41,360 nucleotides of DNA, taken from NCBI GenBank assembly GCA_024542975.1, contig JAMXCZ010000006.1:1-41360 (forward strand). The letters run 5' to 3'. Shown piece by piece: positions 27,763 to 35,743 of this stretch. Made by a program: the position numbers and the translations under genes. The number at the start of each line of letters is the position of its first letter. The first letter of the stretch is position 1. The notes under the pieces are model-generated. The model saw only the letters and a list, made by a program, of their open reading frames with translations. It searched no databases and had not been told where the DNA came from. The stretch is from Candidatus Omnitrophota bacterium. Lineage in GTDB: Bacteria > Omnitrophota > Gorgyraeia > JABMRN01 > RBG-13-46-9.

Positions 27763-30700
27763 TTACAACGCCATTCCCGTCCGGTGTTCGCGCTTGCGGT
27801 ATTCACGCATGGTAGCTTCCATATCCTCGGATTCGATATCAGGCAGGTCCAGTATCAGTAAGCCGTTAAATACGCTCTTAATCTCTGTCGGGTCCAAAGA
27901 GCGAAGCTTCGATTCAAATTCAGGGTGTGCTTTTTTAAAATCTGTTCCGATTATTATACTGAAAGATTCTATCAGGTTGTCTGTGGCGGTTTTGATGAGT
28001 TCTACATTCCAATCCTGCTCTGTAACATTGTTTAAATCATTAAGATGCGCCGCCTGTAGCCCTACCAGCATTTCCCACCACTCTGGGGTATGGTTGCTAT
28101 TTAAGCCGATCATATGAGCAATACCCTTTAGGGAATCCGATATGTTGTAATCGTCCAGCATGCATGCGACAATTACTTCCTTAGGATTTTTCCTTTTAAT
28201 TTCTGCAAGTTCGCGCCGAAGATCGCCTATATATACGGTGTCTTCTGTCTTTTCGCTACTATATAATATAAAGTTTATATGCCCTTTGTCACTATCAGTA
28301 ACTCCTGCTTCGCGTTTTACATTTCTAACGATGCGCCTTGCGGCAATTCGCAATCGGTTCCGGCGGTTCTCAAATTCCTCGTCCGTTTTCCCCCGGTCTC
28401 TTTCCACAGCCACGGCAATGGTATAGTTGGCGTATTCCCAGTATTTGGTATTTTCCCTGCATGCGGCGCCTTTCAGGTTGTCATACAGTTTCACTATACT
28501 TTTCTCGAATTCATCAAGGTCCATAGTTGGTTTTCCCACTGCTGGCTCTTCTTTTGGCTTCTCGCCTTTCGGCCGGTCTATTTCTTCCGCTGAAGAACCG
28601 GGTGACTGTGGCGATGTTGGCTGTGGCGAAGTCGATGACCGACTGCCTGTCACATCAGCGGCGGGTGACGTGGGGGTGGTTCCTGCGGCGGGTTTTGCTT
28701 TTTGCCTAATTCTTACGCGCCACCCATAGCGCGCTCTATCGCTCTCTGGCGCAACACGCCCCGAAGGATTAACATACAGGATAAATTTTTCAAAAGCTGC
28801 TCCATCCGGAATGGCTACATCTACCACCTCGTTTTGAAGCGGAAAATGGCTACCGTAATCCGTATATGTAATTTCGGAGAGCGTATAATCTAATGTGGCG
28901 GCGCAATCATCTGTAACAAAAAAACCTCCTTCATTAAGAAGTTCATGCATCTCATATAAAAAGCAACTGGGTTCTGTATAAGTAATAGGCACTTCTTGCG
29001 CGGCACGCTGATAGTACAGATCTATTTTCCCAAATTCCGATAATTCCCTCACGGTATCCATGTAGTTTTCAGGCTTCGTAATATCGGCGTCGATAAAGGT
29101 TATGGCATAGTCTTGTTGATTCGCGCCTTTATAAGACCATTTAAAGCGTATCATAGGACATGTACCGTTTGTCTCAATTTTTACCTTTGATACGCCTAAC
29201 CCATTTAATTCAGCCGCTAAGGCACCTATTATCTTTTCTTTTGTGTCTAAGTCATAACCAGCGGCGTAACCATGGCGGAACTTGTATTGTGTATATAGAA
29301 CAACGTAATCTTTATAGTATTCAGAGAAATAACGCTCGTCTTCGAGTATTTTAAGGTCTTCTATTGAAATCCCATGGTAATTTGATACAAAGTAACCTTC
29401 CGTAGCATTAGTGGACAAAAGAAAATTTGAAACATTAGCACCGGCAGCGCCGTAAACTGCGCGAAGCGGCATATTACCAGGATTTACTACCTGTCTTACC
29501 GCCATATCGTGCATGGCATATACACTGTGTAGCAAACCCGCGTTGACGGGTCTTGAATCAACTGCCTCCGCTTCAAAAGGTTGTCCTTCGGGTATTTTCG
29601 CGAGGTCGGGCACTCTACCCTCTCGATCCTGTAGTCTTCTTGCACTTTCAACTGCACCGGCATCTGCATCCAAAAGCACCTGAGCGCTTGGGAGTATTAT
29701 GTCCGATTCTGGGGACACACTACTTAGTTCGCTTGTGTCCCCAGAAGTCGTAAATTCGGAAAGTTCCCTGCGAAATATTATTTGTGTACCATTGGAGACA
29801 GGGACCGCTTCTAACACCTCTTCTGTTAAAAAACCCGTCTTCCAATAATAGGCTTTGCTCTTTCCTTGTATTCTGTCTCTATTCACTGTGATAATTTGAA
29901 GTTGATCGCTTATGTCGTTTATCTGATAAAGTCCAAAGCCTTTATCTCTATTTGTCGCCCGTGGTGAAAAAGATATTCCGCGTTGAATAGCTCTATGTAT
30001 CGGCGCGTGACTTCCGTCCGGGGTGACAAAACCATTACCGCGGTCTAAAATTATAAATGAAAAAATCCGCTTATTATCTATCAATTGAGAACGTAAGAGC
30101 AAAGCGCCATAATATCTACCGTGTTCATAAAGATTATCTAACGCGTGCCTTATAGCAGTTCTGCAATCACCATATTCTTTTGTCATTCCTAATGTTTTGA
30201 GCATAAATTCAGAAAGTTCATAATGATTCCCGATTTCGATTGCTTGAAAATCGTTCGGATGTTTTTTTGTGAATTTTTCCTGAATTACTCGAGTTAACTG
30301 TCTACAATGTTCCTCGTTAGTGTGGGATAAATCTTGCCATAATTTATTAATAAGTTCTCTTTCTTCTTCTGTAAATCCTTCTCCGAGTGTACTTGGGGCT
30401 GGTTCCCGCTCCTCGCTTTCCGGCTCAACATGCTCCGGGCCATCCGTCATACGATGCCGTTCTATCCCTCCCATGCCACGCAGGGGGTTTCCGATTGGCT
30501 TATCCACGCCTGCGAATGGATTCGCTTCCATTGCCACTTCTCGCATAATCCTTGGCGGCGCCGGGTACTTATGCGTGCCGTCATCCCTATCCCGAATCTT
30601 GCCGCCTTTGCCTTTCTTTTTCGCATCCGACGCGGCTTCTCCTTTTTTCCCGTCAGGCAGATCAGCTGCAGATGCGGGTTCGGATGATTCTATGCGTTCG

Positions 30701-33700
30701 GCTACAGGTAACATGTTATCTACCTCTGCAAAATATCCTCGCGAACCCAGGCGCACATCTGTTATTCCTAGATCATTAAGGAGTTTAGCTATAACTCCCA
30801 GGACTTGCCCTAATATTGCATCTGCCGTTTCGCTATTAGAGAATGCGCCGGATGCTGTAACCGTCACAATATCTCCATCCTCCACATCCAACGCTAGTAA
30901 CGCTAAAACATCATCACACTGCGCGCCAACGTGAAGCTTTTTGTTTTCGGCATGCAGCGATACGCGCAATTTTTCCTCTATATGCCTGGCCAATTTCGCC
31001 ATTGCGCTGCTTGGCCTTGCGTGGAGCCGAATAGAAGGTAAGTCTCTTGTGCGACTGTATTGAGAAACATCTCCCGGCTGCTTTCTGGCAGATCCACCAG
31101 TCTGTGCACCTGTCCTTTCTGGGACTTCTGGGGACACAGCACTTAATTTGGGAGGAGTAAATACTGTGCCCCCGGAAGTCACTGGGACAGATGTAAGTTC
31201 AGCGCGAGAACCGTTACTGGCATTTGTGCGCCTAAGTAGACGGGCATCGATAGTATTTTTTGTAACACTTATGTCTACTTCCCACTCTCCTTGCTCCAAA
31301 ACATAGGTTAATTCTTCCAGAGAGTCAGCATTCTCCGCTTTCGTTGTATTTAATAATCCACACATAAAATACCAAGAAAAATCGTAATTCCTTAACAAGT
31401 AATCGTGAATTCCAAAGTACGAACTTTTTGTTTCATCAGGCATTATGAAGTGATTGGGCGATGCCATATTTGCAATAACAACACTAGCTTCCCCTATGCC
31501 AGGTACGGTTTCATACCCCAAGAGCCCTTGCACACACCGCACATTATCGACTTTATTCAAAACAAGATATTCTTTTGCTTCGGTAATTGAGAACTCCGAG
31601 TTATCAACTGCTATAACATTCTTTGCGCCAAGGCGTGACGCTAGCGTAGCCAGAATTGCATCATTGCCGCATCCAGCATCCAGGACAACCTGATTTCTTA
31701 GGCCGTGTGAACCTGCTTGCAATAATAGGAGTGACATGTTAGTTAATTCACCAAATTTAAAGTAAGCGTATGCATCGTCAAGAAGAACAAGTTTACATAT
31801 GATTATATTGTTTCTATAGGCTTGGAGTTTGCCTTCATGTAGTTTCCACTCTTCTTTATCTATGAAAAGAAAATCTCCGACAATTACATAATTCCTGGAA
31901 AATATTGTTTTGCAAATAACGCCGTTTATTTCATCCTCTTCTACCAACTGAAAATCTTTGGGCCAGATTCGCCTCGCGAGTTCACTTAGTGGAAAAAATG
32001 GGGACGGCTCTGACTCCGCTAATAATATTGCGATCTCGTCGCCTGGATAAATAACGCTTATGGCTGTATAATCCACGCCGTCAACCATGACAGTCACGTG
32101 GCCGGATGTTATGTCGTCAAGCGTAAGGCCTGGAACTATCTCGCAGATGGCTGGCAATAAGTCCCCCAACGTAGTTGGAGAGCTAAGGTTTATGTCATGC
32201 CTTGTAACCGTTGGTCCCGGACCGGAGTATAACAGGGTAACTTTATCTTTCACATCCCGGCCAGCGCCTGTCTTTTTCTCTTTACCCGCTTTTATACCTA
32301 TGCCAAATTCGTGAGGTACGTCTACATCTTCTGCCTGGTTAGCAGCTTTGTAATACTCTTCGGCTTTTTTCAGCATTCTTCGGATTTTCTCAAGGGCAAT
32401 TGAATGCTGTTTTTCCGCACGTGGTATTGGTATTGCCGCCATATATCGATTGACATCCTCCTGGCAAATATTCACAACCTCCTGCCAGGCAGATCTATGG
32501 TTTTCGTTGAAAAAATACAGCGCCTCATCGAAACCAAAGTCTTTATCAAAATATTCTCCATCGCGCCATCCGACCATCTTTTCCATGGGCCACCCGCGTT
32601 TTATAGCTTCGCCATGCGCAAGAATATATTCTATCTCCTCATGCATAACGTCCAGCTCGACTTCGATTTCGTCTCTATCGGCTGCAACCCAGATAACACC
32701 TTCTTTTTTCCTGTTTTTCCACGTAAACCCTAAGTGGGCAGTAAAAGGCTCACCATCTATTTCACCCAATTTCTCGACAGGCAATTCTACAACCCATAAT
32801 TTTCTTTCCCACCCGCCCTGTCCGACTTGTATGGAATACGAAGCAAGTTTTTCAATATCTATCTGCGCAACAGGCGGCACATCATCGCCAGGCTTTCTTT
32901 CCTTTCCAAACCAGGCCTTAAACACTTTTACATCATATTTATCAAGCCCACCCTCGGTTATTTTGACAAGCTTCGCAAAAAGGCCTCTATCCTTTACACA
33001 ACGTGCCAGTGTTTCTACGATCTGGTCGTTCATTGTCCCGCCTTCTCTATCCCCTCTATGCGGAAGTATCCCCGTCTGGGAAATACCGATACCTGCGCTT
33101 CCTTCGGGTGGTTTTTTTGGTTTGCCTTTCTTCTTCTTTTCCGCATCCGGCTTCTCGTCTTCTGGCTCAACCTTCTCCGCATCCCCTTCCTTCTCCATGT
33201 CCCCCGAATCGTGCGCCGAACTGGCTGGGACTGCTCCGTCCTCGGCAACCTCGATGACTTTTTCGTCCTGCCAAAGATCAATACCTTCAAAGATTTCATC
33301 AAATTTGGGAGTGTGGAAAATTGGGGACGATTCTGCGTCTTCATCTGTATCACCCGCCCCGCTCCCGGGCTCCGTAGCCCACATCCCGAACACATTCTGA
33401 AAAAACGGCCCGAACATTCGCCCAATCAGCGTTTCTCCCCCACGCCGCCCGGAAGGCATAAATTGCATTCCCGGGATAGTTGGCAAAGTATCGCCTTGGT
33501 GTGAATTGCCCTCCTGCAGCAGTTGGGTACGTTCTTCTCTTCTCCAACCCTTTGGCTTGCTTGAAGTTATAGCAAGGCGTTTTTTACTTTGCTTAACAGT
33601 ATCCTTGAATGCGACATCTGTAAGCACAAACGTATGCTCGGCCTTCTTTTCGCCTGCGTCATCGCTTATCTCCCTCCAGCCGTATTTGTCATTTTCATGT

Positions 33701-35586
33701 GTAAAGAGTACCGTTTTTAGTCTTCCTTCTTTGTCGATTATGTTTAGCGGGAGAGGCTCTCCTATTTCCATTGCTTCTCTCAGCAACACCATAAACGTGT
33801 TTACCTCATGCGGAAAAGGCTCGCGGTCTACGAGCTTGCTGAACATGGAGCGGATGGCGAGGTTGTTCGAGGTTCGCTGGAAGTGCTTTCCACCTCCGAG
33901 GTTTCTATGTAAACCTCTTTCATCAACCGCGGAGGTGGAACGCAAACCTCCTAATGACGCTATCGCCTCCCGAATAACCTTCTCCTCCTTAAGCATCTCC
34001 CCATTTAAGAGCCTGAAGTAAGGAGATTCTTCCCGATTCCCCTCAAACTTAGGCATAATGCTTATATATGAGTACCCCTTATCAGTAATAAGCTTCTTTA
34101 AGTTATCTCCGTGGAAGCCGCCGGTTACGATTATTATGGTTTGCCGGTCAGCCGGTAAGCCGGTTAGCCGGTTGTCATTCCCGCGAAAGCGGGAATCCAA
34201 GGTTTGCTCAGTATGGATTCCCGCTTTCGCGGGAATGACAGGGGTAAGATGCTGCTCAATATTTCGCATGAACGCGAAGTCGCGCTCGAAAGCGAGTTCG
34301 TAAGAGCGTTCTGCGAGTTTGAGGTAAGGCGCAAGAGCTTTGAAGGTTGTATCGAAGCCGAGTTCTGATAGAGTCCGGTAATGGTCGTACTTATCGCGCG
34401 TTATCGTAAGATTGAATAGGTCTTTCAATATTGCAAGGTGCTTGGATTCTTTATAGAGCTTCTTTTGCTTGTCGTTAGTAGCGAGAGTATTAAATAATTC
34501 ATCTTCAAGGGCTTCTATTTCACGGAAGAGAAGGTATTTGTCTATGGAATCGTATTTATCGAGGTATTCTTTGTATCTTGAGACATTGGGGTATTTCTCA
34601 TGGGGGTTTATACCTGCTACTTTCATCTTATCCAGTAGATATGTATAGAAATAAACGGGCTTTATCTTGTTTTCTTTGAAGAGGGCTGACTTCTCAACAA
34701 GGGTCTCTATCTCTCCCTTGGACAGGCGCTTGGTCAGTTTGTCTATGAGCCTCTTTCTCTCGGAGTTAGCGCGGCGGTAGTCTATGGCTTTTTCGAGTTC
34801 GAGGACATGGGTTAGCTTGGTTAGGTTTTCGTATGAGATGCCCGGCTTATCGGCGCCTTTTAACGAGAGGAGATACTTCACATACCCGCTTAACTTAAGC
34901 CTCTCGTTTGCAAAGTCTTCTTTCTTCCAATCGAGCTTCGTAAGCTCCTCTGAATAGATACGCTTCTTTTGCTCATCTAAACTCTGGGTTATATCGTTTA
35001 GTATTTCTTCTACCTCGGGCTTTACCTTCAGGCTTTCTCTGTAGGCATTGAGGTTTGCTGTGTAGGCTTCCGGATCTTCTAAGCCTTTCAGGGTGATCTT
35101 TTTGGGGTTCATGATCGCGAAAAGCTCGGCTCCGTTAATTCGCCCCTCTTTTACGAAGTAGTCTGCAACCTTTTCACGTAGGGCAATGTCTTCAATTTCC
35201 GTAAATACTGATAAATCATAATTTCCCGCTCCGCCTTCAAGTAGTGCTAAATCTACCCCGTATTCGCGATTTATATACTCGACTATCCCTTTTATCGCAT
35301 GTTGGCACGCGTAATCGCAGTGGGCGTCTTTTATGTGGATTATGGTTTGCCGGTTAGCGGGTTCGCCGGCTGGTGGGCTTTCTTGTTTTACTTCTCCGAG
35401 ATGGTGGGGGAGTTTAAAAGAACCTGAACCGCCGGTCCTGTTAGGGCCAGTGCTCGTTGGCCCTAACGGTGTTCCGGCAGCCCAGGCAATATTAGACACA
35501 AAAAAGGACCAGAGGGTGATAGAACAAACTATTACCCTAAATGGTCCTTTACTACGAAATATACTATTAGATCGAGCACTAAACAT
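27763..35586 (-). CDS. Giant multidomain mosaic protein with signal peptide
   Basis: 2607 residues. A signal peptide (hydrophobic 17-35, likely cut at AWA/A near 36) leads. Residues 80-530 resemble ChaN/TraB-like proteins (IIHIKDAHCDYACQHAI, ALLEGG, VTGGFHGDNL). After an acidic/Lys-rich linker (740-830) come a possible metalloprotease-like helix (HEEIEYILAHGEA, 982-994), a MoaD/ThiS-like beta-grasp fold (1115-1190), a class I methyltransferase (VLDAGCG 1301-1307, AVDNS 1326-1330), an HPr-like domain (1515-1600, His1522 in LHARPSS), a GHKL-type ATPase (1740-1940: N1818, DRGNGF 1848-1853, GFGL 1883-1886), a second methyltransferase-like fold (2010-2290) and a helical C-terminus (2356-2607). REP-type repeats are translated at 449-480, 1469-1488 and 1948-1960. 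AGGAG ribosome-binding site. Function unknown; domain calls are by motif. Confidence 0.85.
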   Translation of the reverse strand: MFSARSNSIFRSKGPFRVIVCSITLWSFFVSNIAWAAGTPLGPTSTGPNRTGGSGSFKLPHHLGEVKQESPPAGEPANRQTIIHIKDAHCDYACQHAIKGIVEYINREYGVDLALLEGGAGNYDLSVFTEIEDIALREKVADYFVKEGRINGAELFAIMNPKKITLKGLEDPEAYTANLNAYRESLKVKPEVEEILNDITQSLDEQKKRIYSEELTKLDWKKEDFANERLKLSGYVKYLLSLKGADKPGISYENLTKLTHVLELEKAIDYRRANSERKRLIDKLTKRLSKGEIETLVEKSALFKENKIKPVYFYTYLLDKMKVAGINPHEKYPNVSRYKEYLDKYDSIDKYLLFREIEALEDELFNTLATNDKQKKLYKESKHLAILKDLFNLTITRDKYDHYRTLSELGFDTTFKALAPYLKLAERSYELAFERDFAFMRNIEQHLTPVIPAKAGIHTEQTLDSRFRGNDNRLTGLPADRQTIIIVTGGFHGDNLKKLITDKGYSYISIMPKFEGNREESPYFRLLNGEMLKEEKVIREAIASLGGLRSTSAVDERGLHRNLGGGKHFQRTSNNLAIRSMFSKLVDREPFPHEVNTFMVLLREAMEIGEPLPLNIIDKEGRLKTVLFTHENDKYGWREISDDAGEKKAEHTFVLTDVAFKDTVKQSKKRLAITSSKPKGWRREERTQLLQEGNSHQGDTLPTIPGMQFMPSGRRGGETLIGRMFGPFFQNVFGMWATEPGSGAGDTDEDAESSPIFHTPKFDEIFEGIDLWQDEKVIEVAEDGAVPASSAHDSGDMEKEGDAEKVEPEDEKPDAEKKKKGKPKKPPEGSAGIGISQTGILPHRGDREGGTMNDQIVETLARCVKDRGLFAKLVKITEGGLDKYDVKVFKAWFGKERKPGDDVPPVAQIDIEKLASYSIQVGQGGWERKLWVVELPVEKLGEIDGEPFTAHLGFTWKNRKKEGVIWVAADRDEIEVELDVMHEEIEYILAHGEAIKRGWPMEKMVGWRDGEYFDKDFGFDEALYFFNENHRSAWQEVVNICQEDVNRYMAAIPIPRAEKQHSIALEKIRRMLKKAEEYYKAANQAEDVDVPHEFGIGIKAGKEKKTGAGRDVKDKVTLLYSGPGPTVTRHDINLSSPTTLGDLLPAICEIVPGLTLDDITSGHVTVMVDGVDYTAISVIYPGDEIAILLAESEPSPFFPLSELARRIWPKDFQLVEEDEINGVICKTIFSRNYVIVGDFLFIDKEEWKLHEGKLQAYRNNIIICKLVLLDDAYAYFKFGELTNMSLLLLQAGSHGLRNQVVLDAGCGNDAILATLASRLGAKNVIAVDNSEFSITEAKEYLVLNKVDNVRCVQGLLGYETVPGIGEASVVIANMASPNHFIMPDETKSSYFGIHDYLLRNYDFSWYFMCGLLNTTKAENADSLEELTYVLEQGEWEVDISVTKNTIDARLLRRTNASNGSRAELTSVPVTSGGTVFTPPKLSAVSPEVPERTGAQTGGSARKQPGDVSQYSRTRDLPSIRLHARPSSAMAKLARHIEEKLRVSLHAENKKLHVGAQCDDVLALLALDVEDGDIVTVTASGAFSNSETADAILGQVLGVIAKLLNDLGITDVRLGSRGYFAEVDNMLPVAERIESSEPASAADLPDGKKGEAASDAKKKGKGGKIRDRDDGTHKYPAPPRIMREVAMEANPFAGVDKPIGNPLRGMGGIERHRMTDGPEHVEPESEEREPAPSTLGEGFTEEERELINKLWQDLSHTNEEHCRQLTRVIQEKFTKKHPNDFQAIEIGNHYELSEFMLKTLGMTKEYGDCRTAIRHALDNLYEHGRYYGALLLRSQLIDNKRIFSFIILDRGNGFVTPDGSHAPIHRAIQRGISFSPRATNRDKGFGLYQINDISDQLQIITVNRDRIQGKSKAYYWKTGFLTEEVLEAVPVSNGTQIIFRRELSEFTTSGDTSELSSVSPESDIILPSAQVLLDADAGAVESARRLQDREGRVPDLAKIPEGQPFEAEAVDSRPVNAGLLHSVYAMHDMAVRQVVNPGNMPLRAVYGAAGANVSNFLLSTNATEGYFVSNYHGISIEDLKILEDERYFSEYYKDYVVLYTQYKFRHGYAAGYDLDTKEKIIGALAAELNGLGVSKVKIETNGTCPMIRFKWSYKGANQQDYAITFIDADITKPENYMDTVRELSEFGKIDLYYQRAAQEVPITYTEPSCFLYEMHELLNEGGFFVTDDCAATLDYTLSEITYTDYGSHFPLQNEVVDVAIPDGAAFEKFILYVNPSGRVAPESDRARYGWRVRIRQKAKPAAGTTPTSPAADVTGSRSSTSPQPTSPQSPGSSAEEIDRPKGEKPKEEPAVGKPTMDLDEFEKSIVKLYDNLKGAACRENTKYWEYANYTIAVAVERDRGKTDEEFENRRNRLRIAARRIVRNVKREAGVTDSDKGHINFILYSSEKTEDTVYIGDLRRELAEIKRKNPKEVIVACMLDDYNISDSLKGIAHMIGLNSNHTPEWWEMLVGLQAAHLNDLNNVTEQDWNVELIKTATDNLIESFSIIIGTDFKKAHPEFESKLRSLDPTEIKSVFNGLLILDLPDIESEDMEATMREYRKREHRTGMAL
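29708..29745. repeat. In-gene REP-type palindrome 1 (ggggacaca family)
   Basis: A perfect 12-bp inverted repeat, tctggggacaca with tgtgtccccaga, around a 14-base loop. It lies in the giant gene and is translated as SGDTSELSSVSPE (1948-1960). It shares sequence and encoded peptide with 31123-31180. Confidence 0.75.
31123..31180. repeat. In-gene REP-type palindrome 2 (ggggacaca family)
   Basis: A 16-bp inverted repeat, gacttctggggacaca with tgtgcccccggaagtc (two imperfect pairs), around a 26-base loop. In the giant gene it encodes VTSGGTVFTPPKLSAVSPE (from 1469), matching TSGDT...LSSVSPE of the other copy. Confidence 0.75.
34143..34173. repeat. ccggtta short repeats in the giant gene
   Basis: Four units, gccggtca/gccggtaa/gccggtta/gccggtt, in frame as RLTGLPADRQ. 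It abuts the VIPAKAGIH-type palindrome. Related runs are at 14824-14863 and 35349-35370. Confidence 0.7.
34174..34239. repeat. VIPAKAGIH-type REP palindrome in the giant gene
   Basis: A perfect 25-bp inverted repeat, gtcattcccgcgaaagcggg plus aatcc, with its complement at 34215-34239. Translated on the minus strand as VIPAKAGIH...LDSRFRGND (450-471), the well-known protein reading of a widespread bacterial REP-type element. It interrupts the ChaN/TraB-like region just before the VTGGFHGDN strand. Confidence 0.9.
35349..35370. repeat. ccggtta-type repeat near the giant protein N-terminus
   Basis: gccggttagcgggttcgccg (plus gc), translated in frame as PAGEPAN (72-78). The preceding 16 bases attatggtttgccggt (35339-35354) are identical to 34133-34148, so two inserts sit before equivalent RQTII strands. 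Confidence 0.6.
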
Positions 35587-35743
35587 ATCTAACAGTCTCC
35601 TAACTTACTTACTAATGGCCTAACAAAAGCGGCTAAAAAATAATCCTACTCCGTGAGCACTTTATTATCAGAATAGGACCTAATAGGCCTTATACTTATA
35701 TAATCCCCTAAATGGCTGAATAATTCAGAAAAAAGGACGTTTT
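35587..35743 (-). other. Leader region of the giant gene
   Basis: The 157 bases between the rmuC stop and the giant gene ATG. It holds an AGGAG ribosome-binding site ten bases before the ATG, a possible hairpin (tcctactc 35644-35651 with gaatagga 35671-35678) and AT-rich -10-like boxes (TATATAAG, GTATAAGG on the minus strand) near 35690-35703 with no good -35. A separate promoter for the giant gene is plausible but not proven. Confidence 0.35.

What the first reader, a model, noticed from the sequence alone, without database searches (positions are those of the whole stretch)
27763..35586. Giant exported-looking protein combining cytosolic-type domains
One 2607-codon frame joins a signal peptide, ChaN/TraB-like region, MoaD/ThiS-like fold, two methyltransferase-like folds, HPr-like domain and GHKL ATPase-like domain. 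Methyl donors, PEP-dependent phosphorylation and ATP are normally cytoplasmic, so export of this set is puzzling. The combination may be a new modular system or a fusion of former separate genes.
Basis: partly seen in the sequence, partly recalled or inferred. Interest (0 to 1): 0.85.

Follow-up and report, generated by a model that had tools for sequence, protein, structure and literature searches.

The report
Exported giant protein with swappable parts
The window holds one member of a large, undescribed family of giant exported proteins in the uncultured bacterial phylum Omnitrophota: all share the same front end, most of the complete long ones share a short tail, and the middle is built from changing sets of enzyme-like domains, as if one export kit carried many different cargoes.

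Summary
The frame is real: minus strand, 27763-35586, 2607 codons, coding bias throughout, ribosome site, Sec-type signal peptide. The genome is Candidatus Omnitrophota. Residues 80-545 are a conserved 'header', probably a divergent TIKI (ChaN/EreA/TraB) domain: AlphaFold pLDDT 90; D-x-H, E, R, H conserved; the first Foldseek hits are TIKI proteins but not significant. The header occurs in 78 of 117 genomes across the phylum, up to 30 matches per genome, essentially always N-terminal, before 0 to thousands of residues. Bodies change independently of it: in this genome the header is 88% identical to that of a 4567-aa paralogue whose body is mostly different (dN/dS 0.16). Bodies carry cytosolic-type domains (methyltransferases, HPr, GHKL, PPDK, PGK, PGM, LpxC, kinases), several with intact active-site motifs. 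Complete long members mostly end in a shared C-terminal tag, roughly '[LI]xIxPIDxxEIxxWxxAxxEVLRSL'. Giant Omnitrophota ORFs are known; I found no description of this header or tag. Best reading: a polymorphic exported multidomain protein, possibly aimed at host or prey; the function is inference.

The parts
27763..35586 (-). 2607-codon open reading frame (P0001), modular exported giant protein
   Evidence: coding bias and ribosome site
35597..35601 (-). AGGAG, ribosome-binding site 10 nt before the ATG
35479..35586 (-). Sec-type signal peptide, residues 1-36 (...ITLWSFFVSNIAWA)
   Evidence: like segments before the header in 118 of 120 family members
33952..35349 (-). Header domain, residues 80-545, probable divergent TIKI/ChaN-EreA-like domain, with D-x-H, E, R and GGFH conserved
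34249..35076 (-). All-helical insertion inside the header core, about residues 171-446
   Evidence: model
34174..34254 (.). 81-bp in-frame insertion (27 codons, residues 445-471) holding a perfect 27-nt-arm palindrome that reads VIPAKAGI...DSRFRGND; absent from the paralogue L043
   Evidence: disordered in the model
32251..32964 (-). Module 875-1112, no known family, shared with paralogue L043 and with L099; conserved HE..E residues
32002..32250 (-). Possible ThiS/MoaD-like module, residues 1113-1195, no C-terminal GG (weak)
   Evidence: E 0.16; one search gave no supporting structure
31267..31986 (-). PrmA-like methyltransferase module, residues 1201-1440, intact DAGCGND motif
30817..31044 (-). 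HPr-like domain, residues 1515-1590; phosphorylatable His in LHARP kept, regulatory Ser position is Asp
29752..30369 (-). GHKL ATPase-like domain, residues 1740-1945
   Evidence: homologues in L045 and in a 44,856-aa frame
28678..29559 (-). Methyltransferase-like module 2, residues 2010-2303, shared with frames up to 70,450 aa
   Evidence: fold hint only
27766..28434 (-). C-terminal domain, residues 2385-2607
   Evidence: model pLDDT 73.5
27766..27855 (-). C-terminal tag, last 30 residues (strand plus final helix)
29707..29746 (.). Palindromic linker element TTCTGGGGACACA...TGTGTCCCCAGAA between the GHKL and MTase-2 modules
31126..31138 (+). Third copy of TTCTGGGGACACA, in the linker between MTase 1 and HPr

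Best explanation
A member of a phylum-wide family of polymorphic exported giant proteins of Omnitrophota. Shown from sequence: a signal peptide and a conserved header, a body of varying, largely enzyme-like modules, and in most complete long members a conserved C-terminal tag. Inferred: the protein crosses the inner membrane by Sec; the tag and the domain before it serve sorting, outer-membrane passage or surface attachment; the header is a TIKI-type hydrolase acting on the envelope, on a partner cell or on the chain itself; the enzyme domains act where SAM, ATP and PEP exist, that is in the cytoplasm of a host or prey cell, while housekeeping copies such as HPr stay in the cell. Repeated joining of headers to new bodies makes the repertoire polymorphic.
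For: Header in 40 of 59 near relatives and 78 of 117 genomes across the phylum, up to 30 matches per genome, frames up to 35,113 aa; all 77 loci from the species-wide genome scan are Omnitrophota. In 126 header frames it is N-terminal, the one exception being a gene split by an in-frame TAA. Signal-like segment before it in 118 of 120, against 43% of control ORFs. Bodies change: of 320 pairs with 50-60% identical headers, 96% have bodies aligned over less than 30%; P0001 and L043 share header DNA at 88-92% from about codon 5 to 543 with no homologous flank, dN/dS 0.16. Cytosolic-type cargo in header or tag proteins: PCMT, CheR, HATPase, PPDK, receiver, PGK, PGM, UDPGP/NTP transferase, radical SAM, protein kinases, LpxC, APH, with intact kinase, PGM and PPDK active-site motifs in some. 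Tag: leave-one-out AUC 0.95; most of the best-scoring non-header ORFs are themselves large proteins; none of 13 header-only proteins scores like it; in whole genomes 27 of 29 hits lie within one residue of the C-terminus. Ordinary HPr is separate in this genome.
Against: No direct evidence of secretion, transfer into another cell or activity. No immunity genes or dedicated secretion operon were seen; neighbours in the window are housekeeping-type ORFs (read by eye). The TIKI assignment is not significant by Pfam (best E 0.0016) or Foldseek (E 0.086, top probability 0.54). Some complete long members lack the tag, and the tag is seen mainly in this order and a few other families of the class. 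Active sites are judged from motifs only. A signal segment could also be a membrane anchor. The tag profile was built from 42 sequences, 10 of which recur among the 29 hits.
Confidence: 0.5

Rival explanations
1. Surface or periplasmic scaffold: the enzyme-derived domains are former enzymes reused as binding or structural modules of a coat or adhesin, with no activity.
For: HEAT and TPR repeats are frequent in bodies; published readings of Omnitrophota giants as coats or adhesins (PMC10066038); the HPr domain has lost its regulatory Ser; GHKL and MTase 2 are far from solved structures.
Against: Active-site motifs of several kinases, a phosphohexomutase and a PEP-utilising domain are kept; the HPr His is kept; very diverse catalytic families rather than repeated binding folds.
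Confidence: 0.3
2. Polyprotein: the header hydrolase or other proteases cut the exported chain into separate periplasmic enzymes.
For: TIKI superfamily members include endopeptidases (PMC6254334); peptidase M48 and intein splicing domains occur in some bodies; long low-complexity linkers, some with inserted repeats, between modules.
Against: No conserved cleavage motif was looked for or found; header-only proteins exist in other genomes, so the header need not serve a body; cofactors are still missing in the periplasm.
Confidence: 0.12
3. Chance fusion or decaying gene: housekeeping domains joined in frame, or an assembly error.
For: Short palindromic repeats have inserted in frame; one relative carries an in-frame TAA.
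Against: dN/dS 0.16 in the header; coding bias throughout; header recurs in dozens of genomes and header plus C-terminal region in one frame in several; frames up to 70,450 codons stay open.
Confidence: 0.05

Closest known systems
Giant ORFs of Omnitrophota (Seymour et al. 2023, PMC10066038; Ca. Velamenicoccus archaeovorus 39,678-aa protein)
   Same: Same phylum; header and MTase-2 module occur in frames above 20 kb.
   Different: This one is 7.8 kb; the paper reports few annotated domains and poor conservation, whereas a shared header and tag are found here.
Omnitrophota giants with Skillet-clade lipocone domains (eLife 2025, PMC12419801)
   Same: Giant proteins combining methylases, histidine-kinase-type domains, peptidases; proposed use in predation.
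   Different: The passages read mention neither a TIKI header nor a C-terminal tag; no lipocone domain was found here by Pfam.
TIKI superfamily (ChaN, EreA/BcR135, TraB, HopBA1)
   Same: Predicted alpha/beta core; H, E, R, H in order; first Foldseek hits are BcR135.
   Different: Large helical insertion, D instead of the first Glu, no significant database match.
Polymorphic toxin systems (constant N-terminus, variable C-terminus)
   Same: Constant exported header with swapping bodies.
   Different: Bodies are long and multidomain, the C-terminus is conserved rather than toxic, no immunity gene was recognised.
Type IX secretion substrates (C-terminal signal domain, PMC11285876)
   Same: Sec signal plus conserved C-terminal domain.
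   Different: Predicted alpha/beta domain with a final helix, not a beta-sandwich; no SprA match in this genome.

Membership tests
TIKI superfamily | 2His/2Glu catalytic residues (PMC6254334) | tested here: inconclusive
   Aligned in order as D25-x-H27, E55, H430 (A1 numbering): H27, E55, H430 invariant in 53 of 53, D25 in at least 90%, so one Glu is Asp. The correspondence was read from motif order, not from a superposition.
TIKI superfamily | Conserved basic residue near the active site | tested here: inconclusive
   R373 invariant in the alignment; its place next to the other residues in space was not measured.
TIKI superfamily | Parallel beta-sheet core flanked by helices | tested here: inconclusive
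   Confident model with five strands alternating with helices; BcR135 ranks first in Foldseek but E 0.086, probability 0.54, TM 0.11.
TIKI superfamily | Match to Pfam ChaN family PF04187 above its cut-off | tested here: not met
   Weak match in 11 of 53 members, best E 0.0016; none in the window protein.
HPr domain | Pfam PTS-HPr above cut-off and phosphorylatable His | tested here: met
   32.8 bits against 23; LHARP kept.
HPr domain | Regulatory Ser of HPr | tested here: not met
   Asp in the alignment with the genome's own HPr.
SAM-dependent methyltransferase (module 1) | Class I motif and family score | tested here: met
   PrmA 39.7 bits against cut-off 22; DAGCGND motif.
SAM-dependent methyltransferase (module 2) | Family score | tested here: not met
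   Methyltransf_31 E 0.08, below cut-off; no PDB relative with a 20-sequence profile.
ThiS/MoaD | Family score and C-terminal GG | tested here: not met
   E 0.16, no GG (sequence).
GHKL ATPase | N-box, DxGxG and GxGL motifs | tested here: met
   HALDNLYEH, DRGNGF, GFGL, aligned in relatives.
GHKL ATPase | Pfam score above cut-off | tested here: not met
   17.4 bits against 27.4.
Polymorphic toxin system | Constant N-terminus with variable C-terminal parts | tested here: met
Polymorphic toxin system | Cognate immunity gene next door | not tested
   Neighbours in the window were only read as an ORF list and look like housekeeping genes.
Polymorphic toxin system | Delivery into a target cell | not testable with these tools
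   Needs experiment.
Type IX secretion substrate | SprA channel in the genome | tested here: not met
   No match in this 92% complete genome; the control genomes gave only one match, below cut-off, so the test's sensitivity is unproven.
Omnitrophota giant ORF (over 20 kb) | ORF longer than 20 kb | tested here: not met
   7.8 kb; same modules in longer frames.

The most novel reading that the evidence does not exclude
A phylum-wide polymorphic multi-enzyme delivery family with its own header and its own C-terminal sorting signal, using an unknown route to place whole sets of metabolic and signalling enzymes inside host or prey cells.
Probability: 0.3. Interest if true: 0.92.

Novelty: new variant of a known kind. 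Interest (0 to 1): 0.73.

Why it matters
Giant genes of Omnitrophota are described as poorly conserved with few annotated domains (PMC10066038). A shared header and tag give a handle for recognising, counting and sorting them, link small members such as this one to frames of tens of thousands of residues, and turn 'what do the giants do' into testable questions: is the header a hydrolase, is the tag a sorting signal, are exported enzymes active.

Tried and rejected
Misassembly or a decaying frame: rejected on recurrence, dN/dS and coding bias. Simple housekeeping fusion: rejected, since ordinary HPr and a nearby PEP-utilising enzyme are separate in the genome. Type IX secretion: no SprA match and a different predicted C-terminal fold. 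PDB profile searches with the header, MTase 2 and GHKL alignments gave no credible relative; I take the header hits as helical chance matches. Foldseek against viral structures gave no TIKI-like match, and the C-terminal model only generic alpha/beta matches. A viral-contig scan gave one locus in which a 2116-aa tag-bearing header protein lies a few kb from ORFs that look like phage genes, read by eye; probably an Omnitrophota contig with a prophage. A phylum-wide alignment was too divergent for the genome scan, so closer sequences were used. Two literature searches for the header or tag found nothing relevant.

Full report
Observation. The finding gives no strand; the frame lies on the minus strand, 27763-35586, ATG to stop, 2607 aa. 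Codon bias favours this frame in 25 of 26 blocks of 100 codons and an AGGAG sits 10 nt before the start. The genome is an unnamed 1.55-Mb draft; named loci with the same header are all Candidatus Omnitrophota, so I place it there.

Header. Residues 80-545 recur in 40 of 59 relatives and in 78 of 117 genomes drawn from the phylum, up to 30 matches each, in frames from about 500 to 35,113 aa. In the fetched DNA 126 frames hold it, N-terminal in all but one gene that an in-frame TAA splits, with 0 to 4811 residues after it; many of these frames run off a contig end, so lengths are lower bounds. A hydrophobic segment precedes it in 118 of 120 cases against 43% of control ORFs. The alignment keeps D-x-H, E, R and GGFH, the order of the TIKI catalytic residues as described for another superfamily member (PMC6254334), with Asp for the first Glu. 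AlphaFold gives 89.7 pLDDT; strands and helices alternate around a long helical insertion. The first Foldseek hits are BcR135, an Ere-type TIKI protein, but E is 0.086 and TM 0.11; Pfam ChaN matches 11 of 53 members weakly. I call it a probable, not a proven, TIKI domain.

Variable bodies. P0001 and the 4567-aa paralogue L043 of the same genome share header DNA at 88-92% from about codon 5 to 543 and no homologous flank on either side; dN/dS is 0.16. Their bodies share only a piece of about 200 residues and part of the C-terminal domain. Over 320 pairs with 50-60% header identity, 96% have bodies that align over less than 30%. Modules of P0001 recur in other giants in other surroundings: 875-1112 in L043 and L099, GHKL in L045 and in a 44,856-aa frame, the second methyltransferase-like module in frames up to 70,450 aa, the C-terminal domain in six more proteins.

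Cargo. Pfam on other header or tag proteins shows PCMT, CheR, HATPase, PPDK, receiver, PGK, phosphohexomutase, nucleotidyl transferase, radical SAM, protein kinase, ABC1, SpoIIE, GNAT, LpxC, APH, FHA, M48, transglycosylase, HEAT and TPR. Three proteins with kinase motifs, one with a phosphohexomutase serine motif and one with a PEP-utilising His motif keep these active-site patterns. In P0001 the PrmA-like methyltransferase and HPr pass cut-offs; the HPr His is kept, its regulatory Ser is Asp; GHKL motifs are kept; ThiS and the second methyltransferase are hints.

C-terminal tag. Complete long header proteins mostly end in a shared stretch of about 30 residues. A leave-one-out position matrix separates their C-termini from those of other ORFs with AUC 0.95; most of the best-scoring 'negatives' are themselves large proteins (sizes listed), among them L046 and L045 of this genome; 13 header-only proteins score low. 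About 200 residues upstream form a domain in three families; two are homologous by profile comparison, the third shares only the last 44 positions. A profile of the last 70 residues searched over 39 genomes hits 9 of them; of 29 distinct hits 27 end within one residue of the C-terminus, and 19 of the 29 are at places not used to build it (my count). The tag is therefore narrower in range than the header. The model of the P0001 C-terminal domain is moderate (pLDDT 73.5): alpha/beta, with the tag as a strand and the last helix.

Mechanism. Signal peptide, header, varying enzyme-like body and conserved tail are shown from sequence. Export, sorting by the tail and action in another cell are inference from the cofactors these enzymes need and from the host-associated life proposed for the phylum (PMC10066038, PMC12419801). 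Secretins are present in this genome, so an outer-membrane exit exists in principle, but nothing links it to these proteins. A periplasmic or surface scaffold of inactive domains is the main rival.

Known or new. Giant Omnitrophota ORFs and their mixed domains are published. In the papers I could search no header, tag or header-body swapping is described; the library lacks most subscription papers and bioRxiv, including the giant-gene preprint cited, so priority cannot be claimed with certainty.

Noticed in passing
window 34174-34254: A palindromic VIPAKAGI-type repeat inserted in frame into the header of P0001 and absent from the 88%-identical paralogue header; similar repeats elsewhere in the genome.
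   Followed up: partly
window 29707-29746 and 31126-31138: TTCTGGGGACACA occurs only three times in the whole genome, all in interdomain linkers of this frame.
   Followed up: partly
G230:C2 (L167), G205:C6, G121:C3 (L179), G185:C8 (L178): Open frames of 70,450, 57,099, 44,856 and 38,661 aa that hold stretches related to modules of P0001.
   Followed up: no
L219 (IMG/VR contig): A 2116-aa header protein with the C-terminal tag, a few kb from ORFs that look phage-like by eye; probably an Omnitrophota prophage border.
   Followed up: no
members of alignments A4 and A5: Intein splicing and M48 peptidase domains in bodies of header proteins, possible self-processing.
   Followed up: no
L046: A 2107-aa protein of the same genome with a related signal peptide, PPDK_N and receiver domains and a tag-like C-terminus.
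   Followed up: partly
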